Assembly (NCBI GenBank): GCA_003194525.1
Contig: NBIV01000112.1
Coordinates: 124,001 to 188,000 of the forward strand
DNA: 64,000 bases
Reading direction: 5' to 3'
From: Gracilariopsis chorda
Taxonomy: Eukaryota > Rhodophyta > Florideophyceae > Gracilariales > Gracilariaceae
Positions within the stretch are counted from its first letter, which is position 1, and each line of letters begins with the position of its first letter. The notes beneath the pieces are model-generated. The model did no database searches. It was not told where the DNA came from and saw nothing but the letters and a program-made list of their open reading frames with translations. Of the stretch, positions 6,787-31,034 are shown piece by piece. Made by a program: the position numbers and the translations under genes.

Positions 6787-7719
6787 GTCGGAGGCGAAGG
6801 CGTGGTGCAAGACAGAATGAGAGGTGGAGTTATGCGTGGGTAGGTGTTCGGGATGGCAATGGTGATGTGGGTTGAAAGGGGCGGTGTTGACGGTGAAGGT
6901 GAGAGTGCGGGGTGGAGAGTACGATTTCGGGGGGGGGGGAGGGGGGTGTGACAGGAGGGGGTGGGAGGGGCGAACGGTGGGGAGGGGTAGACGTGAGGAT
7001 GATGGTGGAATGAAAGTTGGGCGGAGAGGGGGGGAGGGGGCGGGACAGGAACACGGCACAATGGCGAAGAAGAACGGTGGGGCGGTTTGGCGGGAGCGCG
7101 GCGTACAACAGATACGCCTGGTAACGGCGGTGAGCTTGGCGAGCACCGCGTTGAGCGCACTGCGTTTGCGTATCGCGTTGCGTACGAAGGATGGATGGGT
7201 AGGATTGGTACCTTTGTACCTTTTGGTACCGTTGGTACCGTTGGTACCGTTGTTGTACGCGCCTTTTGGTGGCCGCTGCGCTTGCAGCAGCCGCTGCACA
7301 GGCGCTGCAATCGACGCTGCTGCGTTCCACGTCGCACACGTTGCTCGTGTTTGCCGCCATCCTTTCTGTTTACTACACTGCGTATACTACTGCTGTAGTA
7401 GGTACGTTTGGTAGCAAAGGTATGGGATACCTTGTCTTGGTAAATAGGCGGCTGCGTGTCGCTTCGCGCAAAGTGTTGCTTGCGATGTCACCATGGCGCA
7501 ATCGCTGTACCTTCTCCAGTACCCTTGGTACGCGCTTTCCGCCCTTCCGCACTATCTACGCAGCCGTGACGCTTCCCCTTGCGTACTGGCGTCCAAATTA
7601 CGAACACGCCGTTTGTACAGTCAGCCAATCCACAAAGCCCCCAACTCCTCCTTCCCCAAACTCGTATTTGGAGCAACTCTTTACCCCACCACACAACACA
7701 TCAATCCAGTACCTGTACC
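6787..7719. promoter_or_regulatory. USP upstream region with poly-purine tracts
   Basis: About 930 bases between the FAP 3' end and the USP start. The part 6860-7060 is strongly G-rich on the plus strand (runs of up to ten G near 6930). The array of GGTACC units described separately lies at 7207-7248. The long ORFs here on both strands are products of the biased composition. Confidence 0.45.
7207..7248. repeat. GGTACC array, 9-bp period
   Basis: Three exact GGTACC boxes at 7225, 7234 and 7243 are separated by GTT, giving a 9-bp period. They are preceded by GGTACCTTT at 7207 and TGTACCTTTT at 7215. The box is palindromic, so it reads the same on both strands. It lies about 420 bases upstream of the USP start. 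Variants occur near other genes in the window (9999, 11331, 11493, 15562, 16231), which suggests a shared regulatory element; that is inference. Confidence 0.7.
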
Positions 7720-9639
7720 TTACACTTGTCTTGTACCCGTACTCAAGCTGACAGCCTCAGAAACACCCTGCTGCGCTTGCAACACCAAGTCCGCCCCCTT
7801 TTCCGCAATCATCATAGTCGGCGCGCCAGACTGCCCCCCCGGTAGAGTGGGCATCACCGAAGAGTCGATAACCCTCAACCCCTCAACTCCTCTCACCCTC
7901 AGTTCACTATCAACGGCACAGTCCTCCCCACGTCCCATGCGACACGTACCTACCATAGCATTCGCTGTATGACACGTATTCAATACATACTTCTCAAGCG
8001 CTTGGTCCGACACAACCTCTTTTCCAGGATACGCCTCACGCCCGCGATATTCCTTCAGAGCGTCTTGACATGCTATCTCCCGACACAGCTTCAACCCTTG
8101 AACAAGTGTCCGCAAGTCCTGTGTATCCGCCATCCAGTTGCCATGAATTCTCACACTATCACGAACATCTGTCGATCGAAGAGAAACCCATCCTCTAGAC
8201 CGCGGTCGCGCAGCCACGCTCTGCAAAGTGAACCCAGCCGGCCGGTTGGATTCATTCTTCAAATACGACCCAGCCGTAGCGAAATCCGCCAAAGAATGAT
8301 AAGGATCCGGTTCCGAAACAAAAGGAATAAACCGTAACTGCAAGTCACAGGTACCCATACTCCCATCTGACTTCACAAAGCCTCCCGCCTCGCACATCGG
8401 CGATGTCAACGGCCCCTTTCCACGAAAGATGTAATTCAGAATCGTCCCAATGTTCTTCCCAGTTCGTTCCGTATAATACACCGAACTGTTTCGTTTGTCC
8501 AATTGCGGCGCCTGACTCTCGTAGCTCAGCATCACTGCTGCGTGGTCTTGAAGATTCTGCCCTACTGCTGGAACATCTGCCACAATGGGAATGCCCATGC
8601 CTTCAAGATGCTCCGCTGGACCCACCCCGCTAAGCATCAGAAGCTGCGGGCTCGCATACACGCCTGCTGAAAGTAACACCTCCTTCTCCGCTTTGACCGT
8701 CGCACGATTCCCATCCGCCTTCACGTACGAAACTCCTGAAGCCCTTGGCACTCCGTTACCCTGTTCAAATATAATGCGCTCAACCGTTACACCTGTTTGC
8801 ACAGTTAGGTTCCGTCTAGCTCGTATACTGTTGAGATACGCTGTCGCAGGAGATTCACGATTTCCATCTCTCTGCGTAACTTGAAAGATACCCACGCCAT
8901 CTTGAGACCGTTCCCAGTCGTTGAAGTCGTCATTACGTTGTAACCCACATTGTACAGCTGCGTCTACAAAAGCTGATGACATTGGATTCACGCGCGCCAG
9001 ATCATCAACAGCTAGCGGACCGTTGCAACTGTGTGCCGCTGACTGTTGCTTTAAGGCTGCGCGTTGCCCCTCGGAGCGTTTAAAGTAGGGCAGAACATCC
9101 TCAGCATGCCATCCCTCAGGCCATGATTCGTAATCTGCAGCGTTTCCACGATGATACAACATCACTGAAATGGCATGCGATCCACCCAAAACCTTTCCGC
9201 GTGGGAAATATAAGCGACGTCCGTTTAAGTGCGGCTCCGGTTCTGTGACGAAGGCCCAGTCATGTTTTGAGCCTAGCAAGTAGGGAAAGCCTAGTGGCAC
9301 GCGAAGGTAGAACGAATCGTCCGGAGGCCCGGCTTCTAAAAGTAGTACACGCGTTTTACCATTGGCTGATAAACGATTAGCGAGTACGCAACCAGCGGCT
9401 CCGCCTCCAATTATGACGTAGTCGAAGCTCTGGCTCGGCGGTGAGGTTGCGGTGCGAGGTAGGGTTTCGGAAATCGTGTCTGCTGGGGCGGCATTGGTTA
9501 TGGGCGTTCGTGTGGGAGGGACGACATGTGCCGGGCGATGCGAACGGCTTACGGTGTGAGTGAATGTGCTGGATAGTTTCGAAGCATGGAAGATCGATGG
9601 CAATGGAACAAAGGTGGGAATGGTGGGACCGGAAAACAT
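7720..9639 (-). CDS. GMC oxidoreductase with fatty acid photodecarboxylase (FAP) signature, plastid-type leader
   Basis: This is a 639-residue FAD enzyme of the glucose-methanol-choline family. The ADP-binding fold starts at about residue 72 (FDYVIIGGGAAGCVLANRL, then LLLEAGP), followed by PRGKVLGGSHAISVMLYHRG and SAGVYASPQLLMLSGVGP. The C-terminal active site has CHTANAMVGTCRMG and VIDSSVMPTLPGGQSGAP. What sets it apart is SPMCEAGGFVKSD then DLQLRF. Ordinary GMC enzymes have Ala/Phe/His where this has Cys416, and His/Tyr where it has Arg436. These match the Cys432/Arg451 pair known to mark light-driven fatty acid photodecarboxylases, which turn free fatty acids into alkanes and CO2. The spacing is 20 rather than 19, so the alignment should be checked. 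The leader MFSGPTIPTFVPLPSIF fits a plastid transit peptide. The ATG at 9639 is the first in frame. Similar length to Chlorella FAP (about 650). Confidence 0.82.
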   Translation of the reverse strand: MFSGPTIPTFVPLPSIFHASKLSSTFTHTVSRSHRPAHVVPPTRTPITNAAPADTISETLPRTATSPPSQSFDYVIIGGGAAGCVLANRLSANGKTRVLLLEAGPPDDSFYLRVPLGFPYLLGSKHDWAFVTEPEPHLNGRRLYFPRGKVLGGSHAISVMLYHRGNAADYESWPEGWHAEDVLPYFKRSEGQRAALKQQSAAHSCNGPLAVDDLARVNPMSSAFVDAAVQCGLQRNDDFNDWERSQDGVGIFQVTQRDGNRESPATAYLNSIRARRNLTVQTGVTVERIIFEQGNGVPRASGVSYVKADGNRATVKAEKEVLLSAGVYASPQLLMLSGVGPAEHLEGMGIPIVADVPAVGQNLQDHAAVMLSYESQAPQLDKRNSSVYYTERTGKNIGTILNYIFRGKGPLTSPMCEAGGFVKSDGSMGTCDLQLRFIPFVSEPDPYHSLADFATAGSYLKNESNRPAGFTLQSVAARPRSRGWVSLRSTDVRDSVRIHGNWMADTQDLRTLVQGLKLCREIACQDALKEYRGREAYPGKEVVSDQALEKYVLNTCHTANAMVGTCRMGRGEDCAVDSELRVRGVEGLRVIDSSVMPTLPGGQSGAPTMMIAEKGADLVLQAQQGVSEAVSLSTGTRQV

Positions 9640-10215
9640 TTGAGGGGAGTGTAGGGGTAAGAGCAAGTAAGAGAAAGACAAAAAGCCTCGGGGGGAAAGA
9701 TGGTGGGATTGGAAATAAATGGATTAACTGTGCGGAATGGAGGCCGTTGTTGAGTCTTCAAACAGCGTGCGAGTGTTGTGCAATGTCGGTTGGGAGTGTC
9801 GGAATCTGAGCAACGGAGATCACTCGTTGAGAGCATGGGAGGATCTCAGTGGTGGCGATTGGTTGTTGAAGGATACGTGGACGACGTGTTTGATCGAGCG
9901 AGCACTTGCAGATGACCCACGAACCTATACGATCAAGGAGGTTCGGTAATGGCTGGCTGTATCATACAGTGCTAATAGAATGCACGACTACCTACCCTTG
10001 GTACCGTTGGTACCTTTGTACCAACGGCAGCGGAACACAATTGAATAGCAAAGTTTGCAAAAGGGAAGCGCTAGCGATCCAGCCCGGCGCTGCACACTGC
10101 CAACCGAAGTTTGGATTCTGTTGGTGAAGCTCAAGTCAACAAAAAAAAGGCGCTGCTGTTACATTGTTTTAAGGGTAGCCAAACAGATCGCAGTACTTAT
10201 ACAAGTGCAAGGGTT
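9640..10215. promoter_or_regulatory. FAP upstream spacer
   Basis: About 580 bases between the FAP start and the 3' end of the DUF2358 gene, both on the minus strand. It contains the GGTACC pair at 9999-10026 and otherwise nothing I recognise. Confidence 0.45.
9999..10026. repeat. GGTACC pair upstream of FAP
   Basis: GGTACCGTTGGTACC followed by TTTGTACCAACGG. This is the same 9-bp spacing as the array at 7207-7248, and it ends with the reverse-complement half CCAACGG. It lies about 360 bases upstream of the FAP start. Confidence 0.65.
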
Positions 10216-11139
10216 TCAGCGTTGTTTTGGGTCGCTTGCAGCGCGCTGCTCCAAAATTTGTTCGATACTCGCGGCAGGCGGGGCACCAAAGCGCTTGAAT
10301 ACAACGCTGACAAAGGCATCAAGGGCCGTAACGGACCAAGTTTCCACGTGAGATTTCACTAAACGTTGTTGATCAAAGGTGTAAATGGTGCATCCAGTGT
10401 ACGGCTTGATCGTAGGTTTCCAAGGAAGATTGAGAGCACCCTCTAGTCTCCACTCGGCTGAAATACGGTTTTGGTCTAAGACTTGAATGTGTATGAGTTG
10501 CACATTGGATAAACGACGGCAAAATAATCCGGCTGTGGCGGAGGTGTACTTCTGAAGGCCGCGAACAGGGACGTCTGGATCTGGTCCATCGAACAGACAG
10601 TCATCTCTGTAGATCTCTGTGGTGAGTCTTCCAGTAATGTAGTATTGTCTTTTTTCAAAGTCTTCCTGAATAAGAGTTAAGCATGTGTCGATGGGCAGGT
10701 TGGGCGTCTTTGCCGTGGTCGGGGCGCACGGTAGAAGCGAGGATGGTAGGATGGACTTATGACGGGTGAGGATTGCCCAGGTCAGTACTTGTCGAATGGC
10801 GTCCAACGTATCGGTAAATCTGCGACGCCAAAAGGGACATTTGACGGTGTTTGTGCGCTCGGTGAGCGCATCGAGACGCGATAATAACTGCGTTGACGGC
10901 GGCGTAGGAGGAGAGTGGCGACTGCACAACACTCGCGCGCCGGCGTGGCTGCGCCTTCGTTGTCGCAGCAACGGCGAATTCGAGACGAAGGCGGCGGATG
11001 ACATGGTGCTCGGCGCTAAGGCGCAGACACTGAGCTGCGTGTGGCGGCGTGCTTCACTCACGTGCTCCATGTGGCGACGGCGATGGTGCGCGGCCATCCG
11101 CGGGAGGCGGAACGCGTACTCTCCCCGAGCGCGGCACAT
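10216..11139 (-). CDS. DUF2358 family protein, probably plastid-targeted
   Basis: The C-terminal two-thirds match the DUF2358 family of plant, algal and cyanobacterial proteins of unknown function, which have an NTF2/SnoaL-like fold. The visible blocks are CLTLIQEDFEKRQYYITGRL, TEIYRDDCLFDGPDPDVPVRG, LSNVQLIHIQVLDQNRISA and EWRLEGALNLPWKPTIKPYTG, with the end WSVTALDAFVSVVFKRFGAP. Several in-frame ATGs exist (11139, 11097, 11070, 11004). I favour 11004 in practice, because MSSAAFVSNSPLLRQRRRSHAG looks like a red-algal transit peptide with the FV motif and gives 262 residues. The upstream part is Arg/His-rich and unconserved. Its neighbour FAP is also plastid-type. Divergent from TFIIE-alpha. 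Confidence 0.87.
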   Translation of the reverse strand: MCRARGEYAFRLPRMAAHHRRRHMEHVSEARRHTQLSVCALAPSTMSSAAFVSNSPLLRQRRRSHAGARVLCSRHSPPTPPSTQLLSRLDALTERTNTVKCPFWRRRFTDTLDAIRQVLTWAILTRHKSILPSSLLPCAPTTAKTPNLPIDTCLTLIQEDFEKRQYYITGRLTTEIYRDDCLFDGPDPDVPVRGLQKYTSATAGLFCRRLSNVQLIHIQVLDQNRISAEWRLEGALNLPWKPTIKPYTGCTIYTFDQQRLVKSHVETWSVTALDAFVSVVFKRFGAPPAASIEQILEQRAASDPKQR

Positions 11140-15561: not shown

Positions 15562-15579
15562 GGTACCGTTGGTAACTTA
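15562..15579. promoter_or_regulatory. GGTACC/CCGTTGGTA motif
   Basis: GGTACCGTTGGTAACTTA. The last 14 bases (CCGTTGGTAACTTA) are identical to 11493-11506 upstream of TFIIE-alpha. Confidence 0.55.
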
Positions 15580-31019: not shown

Positions 31020-31034
31020 GGTACCAAAGGTACC
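31020..31034. repeat. GGTACC pair in gene-poor DNA
   Basis: GGTACCAAAGGTACC, two boxes with the same 9-bp spacing as at 7207 and 9999, but here without a recognised gene nearby. Confidence 0.55.

What the first reader, a model, noticed from the sequence alone, without database searches (positions are those of the whole stretch)
7720..9639. A GMC oxidoreductase with the Cys/Arg pair of fatty acid photodecarboxylase
Seen: Cys416 in SPMCEAGGF and Arg436 in DLQLRF, with the HxxN motif in CHTANAM, in a protein with a plastid-type leader. Known: FAP is a rare light-driven enzyme, and Cys432 and Arg451 of the Chlorella enzyme are diagnostic and absent from other GMC enzymes. Inference: this locus makes alkanes or alkenes from fatty acids in the plastid.
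Basis: partly seen in the sequence, partly recalled or inferred. Interest (0 to 1): 0.75.

Follow-up and report, generated by a model that had tools for sequence, protein, structure and literature searches.

The report
Red-algal light-driven fatty acid decarboxylase
This gene very probably makes fatty acid photodecarboxylase, a light-powered enzyme that turns fatty acids into hydrocarbons in algal chloroplasts; the enzyme family is already reported from red and green algae.

Summary
Window 7720-9639 (minus strand) is one open frame of 639 codons, called P0001 here. Its best match among solved structures is Chlorella FAP (CvFAP; E 1.5e-123). Cys416, Arg436, His557 and Asn560 fall in the columns of CvFAP C432, R451, H572 and N575. 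Of 88 prokaryotic GMC relatives, 1 has the Cys and 0 the Arg, and 88 keep a His and an Asn that both FAPs have replaced. P0001 and CvFAP share 14 near-private residues, against at most 6 in 2502 other pairs at up to 46% identity, and a loop longer than in any of the 88. The leader resembles those of six of seven phycobilisome linkers in this genome; its six other GMC proteins start with secretion-like segments. The tree joins P0001 to CvFAP at 99/87 but leans on active-site columns: 86/1.6 without eight, unresolved without 16. Only one FAP reference was in reach, and CvFAP Y466 is not conserved. Best reading: plastid FAP of a red alga, a new member of a known kind. Activity is inferred, not shown.

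The parts
7720..9639 (-). FAP coding sequence, 639 codons plus stop in one open frame; start codon 9639-9637, stop 7722-7720
   Evidence: homology to CvFAP over residues 66-629
9442..9639 (-). N-terminal plastid-type leader, residues 1-66
   Evidence: composition; pLDDT under 50 for residues 1-65; comparison with phycobilisome-linker leaders
8539..9426 (-). GMC_oxred_N flavin domain, residues 72-367
   Evidence: Pfam PF00732 E 7.2e-48
7804..8205 (-). GMC_oxred_C domain, residues 479-612
   Evidence: Pfam PF05199 E 4.1e-32
8392..8394 (-). Cys416 = CvFAP C432
8332..8334 (-). Arg436 = CvFAP R451
8227..8334 (-). loop Arg436-Thr471, 36 residues (34 in CvFAP, 20-30 in 88 prokaryotic relatives); carries the CvFAP Y466 position, here Leu450 or Ala451
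7957..7971 (-). His557-x-x-Asn560-Ala561 = CvFAP H572, N575, A576; column 561 is His in 88 of 88 prokaryotic relatives and in the six paralogs
7825..7833 (-). Gln603-Ser-Gly605 = CvFAP Q620, T621, G622; column 603 is Asn in 88 of 88 prokaryotic relatives

Best explanation
The gene encodes a fatty acid photodecarboxylase (FAP) of a red alga, made in the cytosol and imported into the plastid. Inferred mechanism, carried over from CvFAP: FAD absorbs blue light, a fatty acid carboxylate held near Arg436 gives an electron to the excited flavin, CO2 leaves, and the alkyl radical is quenched by back electron transfer with a proton from Arg436/water, with a role for Cys416, releasing an alkane or alkene one carbon shorter (C17 or C15 from C18 or C16 acids). 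Shown here: homology, residue columns, predicted fold, loss of the usual GMC residues, leader type, and that it is the only one of the GMC genes found in this genome with these residues. Inferred: import, light-driven activity, substrate and product.
For: Best hit among PDB sequences is CvFAP, E 1.5e-123 against 6.4e-108 for the best non-FAP chain. 40% identity to CvFAP over 569 alignment columns. C/R/H/N columns match. 14 near-private shared residues; the next highest of 2502 other pairs at up to 46% identity has 6 (paralogs not included; with paralogs the highest for CvFAP is also 6). Shared replacement of the His of column 561 by Ala and the Asn of column 603 by Gln, 88 of 88 prokaryotic relatives keeping the originals. 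Shared longer loop. Tree clade 99/87 and AU rejection of three rival pairings of P0001. The AlphaFold model (mean pLDDT 83.3) finds CvFAP in the first nine Foldseek rows, eight entries. Leader like those of six of seven phycobilisome linkers in the same genome, unlike the six GMC paralogs. Neighbouring genes are eukaryotic (ALG3, ubiquitin hydrolase, TFIIE alpha). FAP reported in red algae, and bound to thylakoids in Chlamydomonas (PMC8260119, whole text). Heptadecane is reported as a major red-algal hydrocarbon in other species (PMC7863916, passages), and no match to aldehyde decarbonylase PF11266 was found in this genome.
Against: Prokaryotic GMC proteins are as similar overall as CvFAP: L057 424 bits, CvFAP 396 bits. 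Without eight active-site columns the clade drops to 86/1.6; without the 16 shared columns it is unresolved, AU p 0.49. Only one FAP reference. His557 also occurs in 3 of 88 prokaryotic rows, among them the closest ones by score. CvFAP Y466 is not conserved: the position reads Leu450 or Ala451 depending on the alignment, whereas PMC11664916 reports Tyr in green and Lys in red algae. P0001 departs at two flavin-loop positions that 87 of 88 prokaryotic rows and CvFAP keep (S155H, N158S). Having the residues does not guarantee activity: in PMC11664916 four of five FAP candidates tested made pentadecane from palmitate (passages). No activity, expression or localisation data here.
Confidence: 0.87

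Rival explanations
1. A FAP homologue whose photochemistry or substrate range differs from CvFAP: same active-site core, but an altered tunnel loop and flavin loop, so that it acts on other acids or is a weak or promiscuous photoenzyme.
For: Y466 position changed to Leu/Ala, T430 and G431 positions to Pro414 and Met415; S155H and N158S in the flavin loop; loop residues 449-451 and 454-458 have pLDDT under 50, so the loop cannot be modelled with confidence.
Against: C, R, H, N and two Gln positions are all kept. In PMC13397541 (passages) Y466 donates the proton in 4 of 72 reactive trajectories and is said not to take part directly in proton or hydrogen transfer in earlier work.
Confidence: 0.09
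2. An ordinary GMC alcohol or choline dehydrogenase of bacterial origin that reached similar active-site residues by chance or convergence.
For: Comparable overall similarity to bacterial GMC proteins; NCBIfam names it choline dehydrogenase, but below the curated cut-offs (506.7 of 605 and 429.9 of 732.1 bits); clade support falls without active-site columns.
Against: The His that 88 of 88 prokaryotic relatives keep is Ala and the Asn is Gln; 14 shared near-private residues against 6 at most; AU tests reject three prokaryotic pairings.
Confidence: 0.03
3. Bacterial contamination of the assembly rather than an algal gene.
For: One open frame without an evident intron; prokaryotic relatives at 36.5-43.5% identity.
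Against: Eukaryotic genes on both sides in the same window and a plastid-type leader; flanked by a short repeat found 152 times in the genome.
Confidence: 0.01

Closest known systems
CvFAP, fatty acid photodecarboxylase of Chlorella variabilis (PDB 5NCC, 6YRU, 6ZH7)
   Same: Fold, both GMC domains, C432, R451, H572, N575, Q486, Q620, A576, longer loop after R451; CvFAP is named chloroplastic in the PDB
   Different: About 40% identity; Y466, T430, G431 and G462 positions differ; S155H and N158S are its own
Algal FAP family incl. red algae (Moulin et al. 2021; not held; known here through the commentary PMC8260119, whole text)
   Same: FAPs reported conserved in red algae and predicted chloroplastic
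Bacterial choline dehydrogenase/GMC oxidases (PDB 9LQ0, 8B7S, choline oxidase 2JBV)
   Same: GMC fold; 36.5-43.5% identity for the 80 nearest prokaryotic relatives
   Different: 88 of 88 prokaryotic relatives keep the His of column 561 and the Asn of column 603, and none has the Cys/Arg pair

Membership tests
Fatty acid photodecarboxylase | GMC fold with FAD-binding N and substrate C domain | tested here: met
   (predicted fold)
Fatty acid photodecarboxylase | Cys at C432 | tested here: met
   Cys416; 1 of 88 prokaryotic relatives has it
Fatty acid photodecarboxylase | Arg at R451 | tested here: met
   Arg436; 0 of 88
   His557, Asn560; His in 3 of 88 and Asn in 0 of 88 prokaryotic relatives
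Fatty acid photodecarboxylase | Tyr (green) or Lys (red) at Y466, as reported in PMC11664916 | tested here: not met
   Leu450 or Ala451 according to the alignment; alignment and model are uncertain there. Not strictly defining: the same paper shows it varies between algae, and Y466A variants work as photoenzymes
Fatty acid photodecarboxylase | Falls in the algal FAP clade | tested here: inconclusive
   With CvFAP 99/87; weak or unresolved without active-site columns; no other FAP in reach
Fatty acid photodecarboxylase | Plastid targeting | tested here: inconclusive
   Leader composition and comparison with linkers of the same genome fit; no import test
Fatty acid photodecarboxylase | Light-dependent hydrocarbon formation | not testable with these tools
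   none
Ordinary GMC alcohol/choline dehydrogenase | Conserved active-site His (YHPxGT) and Asn (GNxNAP); their catalytic role is recalled from choline oxidase, no call | tested here: not met
   Ala561 and Gln603; 88 of 88 prokaryotic relatives keep His and Asn

The most novel reading that the evidence does not exclude
A divergent red-algal FAP branch with a remodelled substrate tunnel (no Tyr or Lys at the Y466 place, Pro-Met before the Cys) and a changed flavin loop (His155, Ser158), giving other chain-length preference or radical chemistry than CvFAP. This overlaps with the best explanation: it would still be a FAP.
Probability: 0.2. Interest if true: 0.5.

Novelty: new member of a known kind. 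Interest (0 to 1): 0.33.

Why it matters
FAP is described in the papers read as needing light in every cycle, one of few such enzymes. A red-algal copy fits an old origin in algae and is a candidate enzyme for the heptadecane reported from red seaweeds. Its changed tunnel loop makes it a possibly useful natural variant for enzyme work. FAP in red algae is itself already reported.

Tried and rejected
More FAP references: three scans of viral contigs (queries P0001, the P0001+CvFAP alignment, CvFAP) gave no relative; the Moulin 2021 paper is not held; searches for photodecarboxylase with Chondrus crispus (0 papers) and with Gracilari (1 paper, which cites Gracilariopsis only in its reference list) gave no sequences. 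A reading as bacterial contamination was dropped because of the flanking genes. 'Phe near the N terminus' as a mark of plastid import was dropped: five of six GMC paralogs with secretion-like N termini have it too. The sigma-70 scan upstream found nothing above shuffles, as expected for a nuclear gene. One AU test (all prokaryotic rows plus P0001 against the rest) did not finish and was not repeated. Species: the genome size (91.3 Mb) resembles Gracilariopsis as I recall it; not tested, so not claimed.

Full report
What is there. Window 7720-9639 on the minus strand is a single open frame of 639 codons. It has both GMC oxidoreductase domains (Pfam PF00732 E 7.2e-48, PF05199 E 4.1e-32). The window is part of a 91.3 Mb genome in 1081 contigs. 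Seven phycobilisome-linker matches on seven contigs (of 14 control genomes one rings, a cyanobacterium) and eukaryotic neighbours (ALG3, ubiquitin hydrolase, TFIIE alpha) point to the nuclear genome of a red alga; a glaucophyte is not excluded by this alone. The species was not established.

Residues. The best hit among PDB sequences is CvFAP, E 1.5e-123; the best non-FAP chain, a chloramphenicol-inactivating oxidoreductase, has 6.4e-108. Cys416, Arg436, Gln473, His557, Asn560, Ala561, Gln603 and Gly605 stand in the columns of CvFAP C432, R451, Q486, H572, N575, A576, Q620 and G622 (the numbering fits with a single offset). Of the 88 prokaryotic rows, 1 has the Cys, 0 the Arg, 0 Gln473, 3 His557 (L057, L104, L105), 0 Asn560, 0 Ala561, 0 Gln603 and 0 Gly605; 88 of 88 have His at column 561 and Asn at column 603. 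None of the six paralogs has the Cys or the Arg; six of six keep His at column 561 and have Gly at column 603.

Is that more than chance? Counting residues shared by two rows and by at most 2% of the rest, P0001 and CvFAP share 14. Of the other 2502 pairs at up to 46% identity (of 4005 pairs among 90 rows, paralogs left out) the highest has 6. Counted with the paralogs, the next highest for CvFAP is also 6 (L004, L005) and for P0001 it is 5 (L002). The stretch from Arg436 to Thr471 is 36 residues long here and 34 in CvFAP, but 20-30 in the 88 prokaryotic relatives.

Tree. With 48 of 99 rows (thinned at 62% identity) P0001 and CvFAP form a clade at 99/87. Holding P0001 with L057, L105 or L106, or CvFAP with L057, is rejected at AU p 0.003-0.012; these groups were chosen after the tree was seen, so the p-values are optimistic. 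The result leans on the active site: without eight active-site columns the clade is still in the best tree but at 86/1.6; without the 16 shared columns, which were chosen because they favour the clade, it is unresolved, neither shown nor rejected (AU p 0.49). In that last tree both still lie outside the 40 prokaryotic rows (90/87), with the six distant paralogs as the root. Overall identity alone does not separate FAP from bacterial GMC proteins: L057 424 bits, CvFAP 396 bits.

Structure. AlphaFold2 on P0001 plus 23 prokaryotic translations gave mean pLDDT 83.3 and pTM 0.84, with residues 1-65 and short stretches of the 449-458 loop under 50. Foldseek against PDB lists CvFAP in its first nine rows (eight entries, best E 3.0e-64), then a bacterial alcohol oxidase at 9.0e-57. 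All share the GMC fold, so this is consistent rather than decisive.

Leader. Residues 1-52 have no acidic residue and 24 Ser/Thr/Pro. Six of the seven linker loci of this genome have a leader of like make-up; for the seventh (L095) no clear leader was seen in the frame examined, and it was left out of the composition count. The six GMC paralogs instead begin with hydrophobic, signal-peptide-like stretches. The ranges nearly touch or overlap: peak hydrophobicity is 0.74-2.03 in the linkers, 1.35 in P0001 and 2.12-3.47 in the paralogs, and Ser/Thr/Pro counts cross (L003 13, L094 12). So this is support, not proof. Among the seven GMC proteins found in this genome this one alone looks plastid-bound.

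How it would work. From CvFAP work: light-excited FAD takes an electron from the carboxylate, CO2 leaves, and the radical is quenched. PMC13397541 (passages) finds, in simulations, proton donation from R451, directly or through water, in about 83% of reactive trajectories and from C432 in about 10%; PMC13097135 (passages) says that activity is strongly reduced or lost when C432 is changed to serine. Both residues are present here. No match to the cyanobacterial aldehyde decarbonylase family PF11266 was found in this genome (other hydrocarbon pathways were not searched), and heptadecane is a reported major hydrocarbon of other red algae (PMC7863916, passages). Activity, substrate and localisation remain inferred.

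Departures. The Y466 position is Leu450 or Ala451 according to the alignment; PMC11664916 reports Tyr in green and Lys in red algal enzymes (passages). T430 and G431 correspond to Pro414 and Met415. S155H and N158S change positions that 87 of 88 prokaryotic rows and CvFAP keep. These are the only hints of something beyond an ordinary FAP. The same paper also shows that a FAP-like sequence need not be active: of five sequence-based candidates tested, four made pentadecane.

Novelty. The commentary on Moulin et al. 2021 (PMC8260119, whole text) states that FAPs of red algae are conserved and predicted chloroplastic and that selected algal FAPs made hydrocarbons in E. coli. This gene is therefore a new member of a known kind; whether this very gene is already listed in a database or in that paper could not be checked.

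Noticed in passing
window 7225-7248, 10000-10014, 15562-15576, 31020-31034: Short repeat GGTACCNTTGGTACC: 5 matches in the window with up to 1 mismatch against 0.05 expected; GGTACCGTTGGTACC has 152 exact matches in the genome, 0 for the reversed-pattern control. Sites lie on both sides of the FAP gene. Perhaps a promoter element or small dispersed repeat.
   Followed up: partly
L002-L007 (own genome): Six further GMC oxidoreductases, 24-29% identical to P0001, with hydrophobic secretion-like N termini; two lie close together on contig C90. Perhaps secreted oxidases.
   Followed up: partly
window 10216-11139, minus strand: DUF2358 protein upstream of the FAP gene (PF10184 E 6.9e-12).
   Followed up: no
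L058 4001-5623: The only one of 88 prokaryotic relatives with Cys in the C432 column, but with His at the Arg place and the usual His kept.
   Followed up: no
L057, L104, L105: Two haloarchaeal and one Streptomyces GMC protein, among the closest prokaryotic relatives, carry the FAP-like His557 without the Cys, Arg, Asn or Ala. Possibly near the stock from which FAP arose; the tree does not resolve this.
   Followed up: no
L106 (Trichormus variabilis plasmid C): Cyanobacterial GMC protein 43% identical to P0001 with Thr in the Arg column; not resolved as a neighbour of FAP in the tree.
   Followed up: partly
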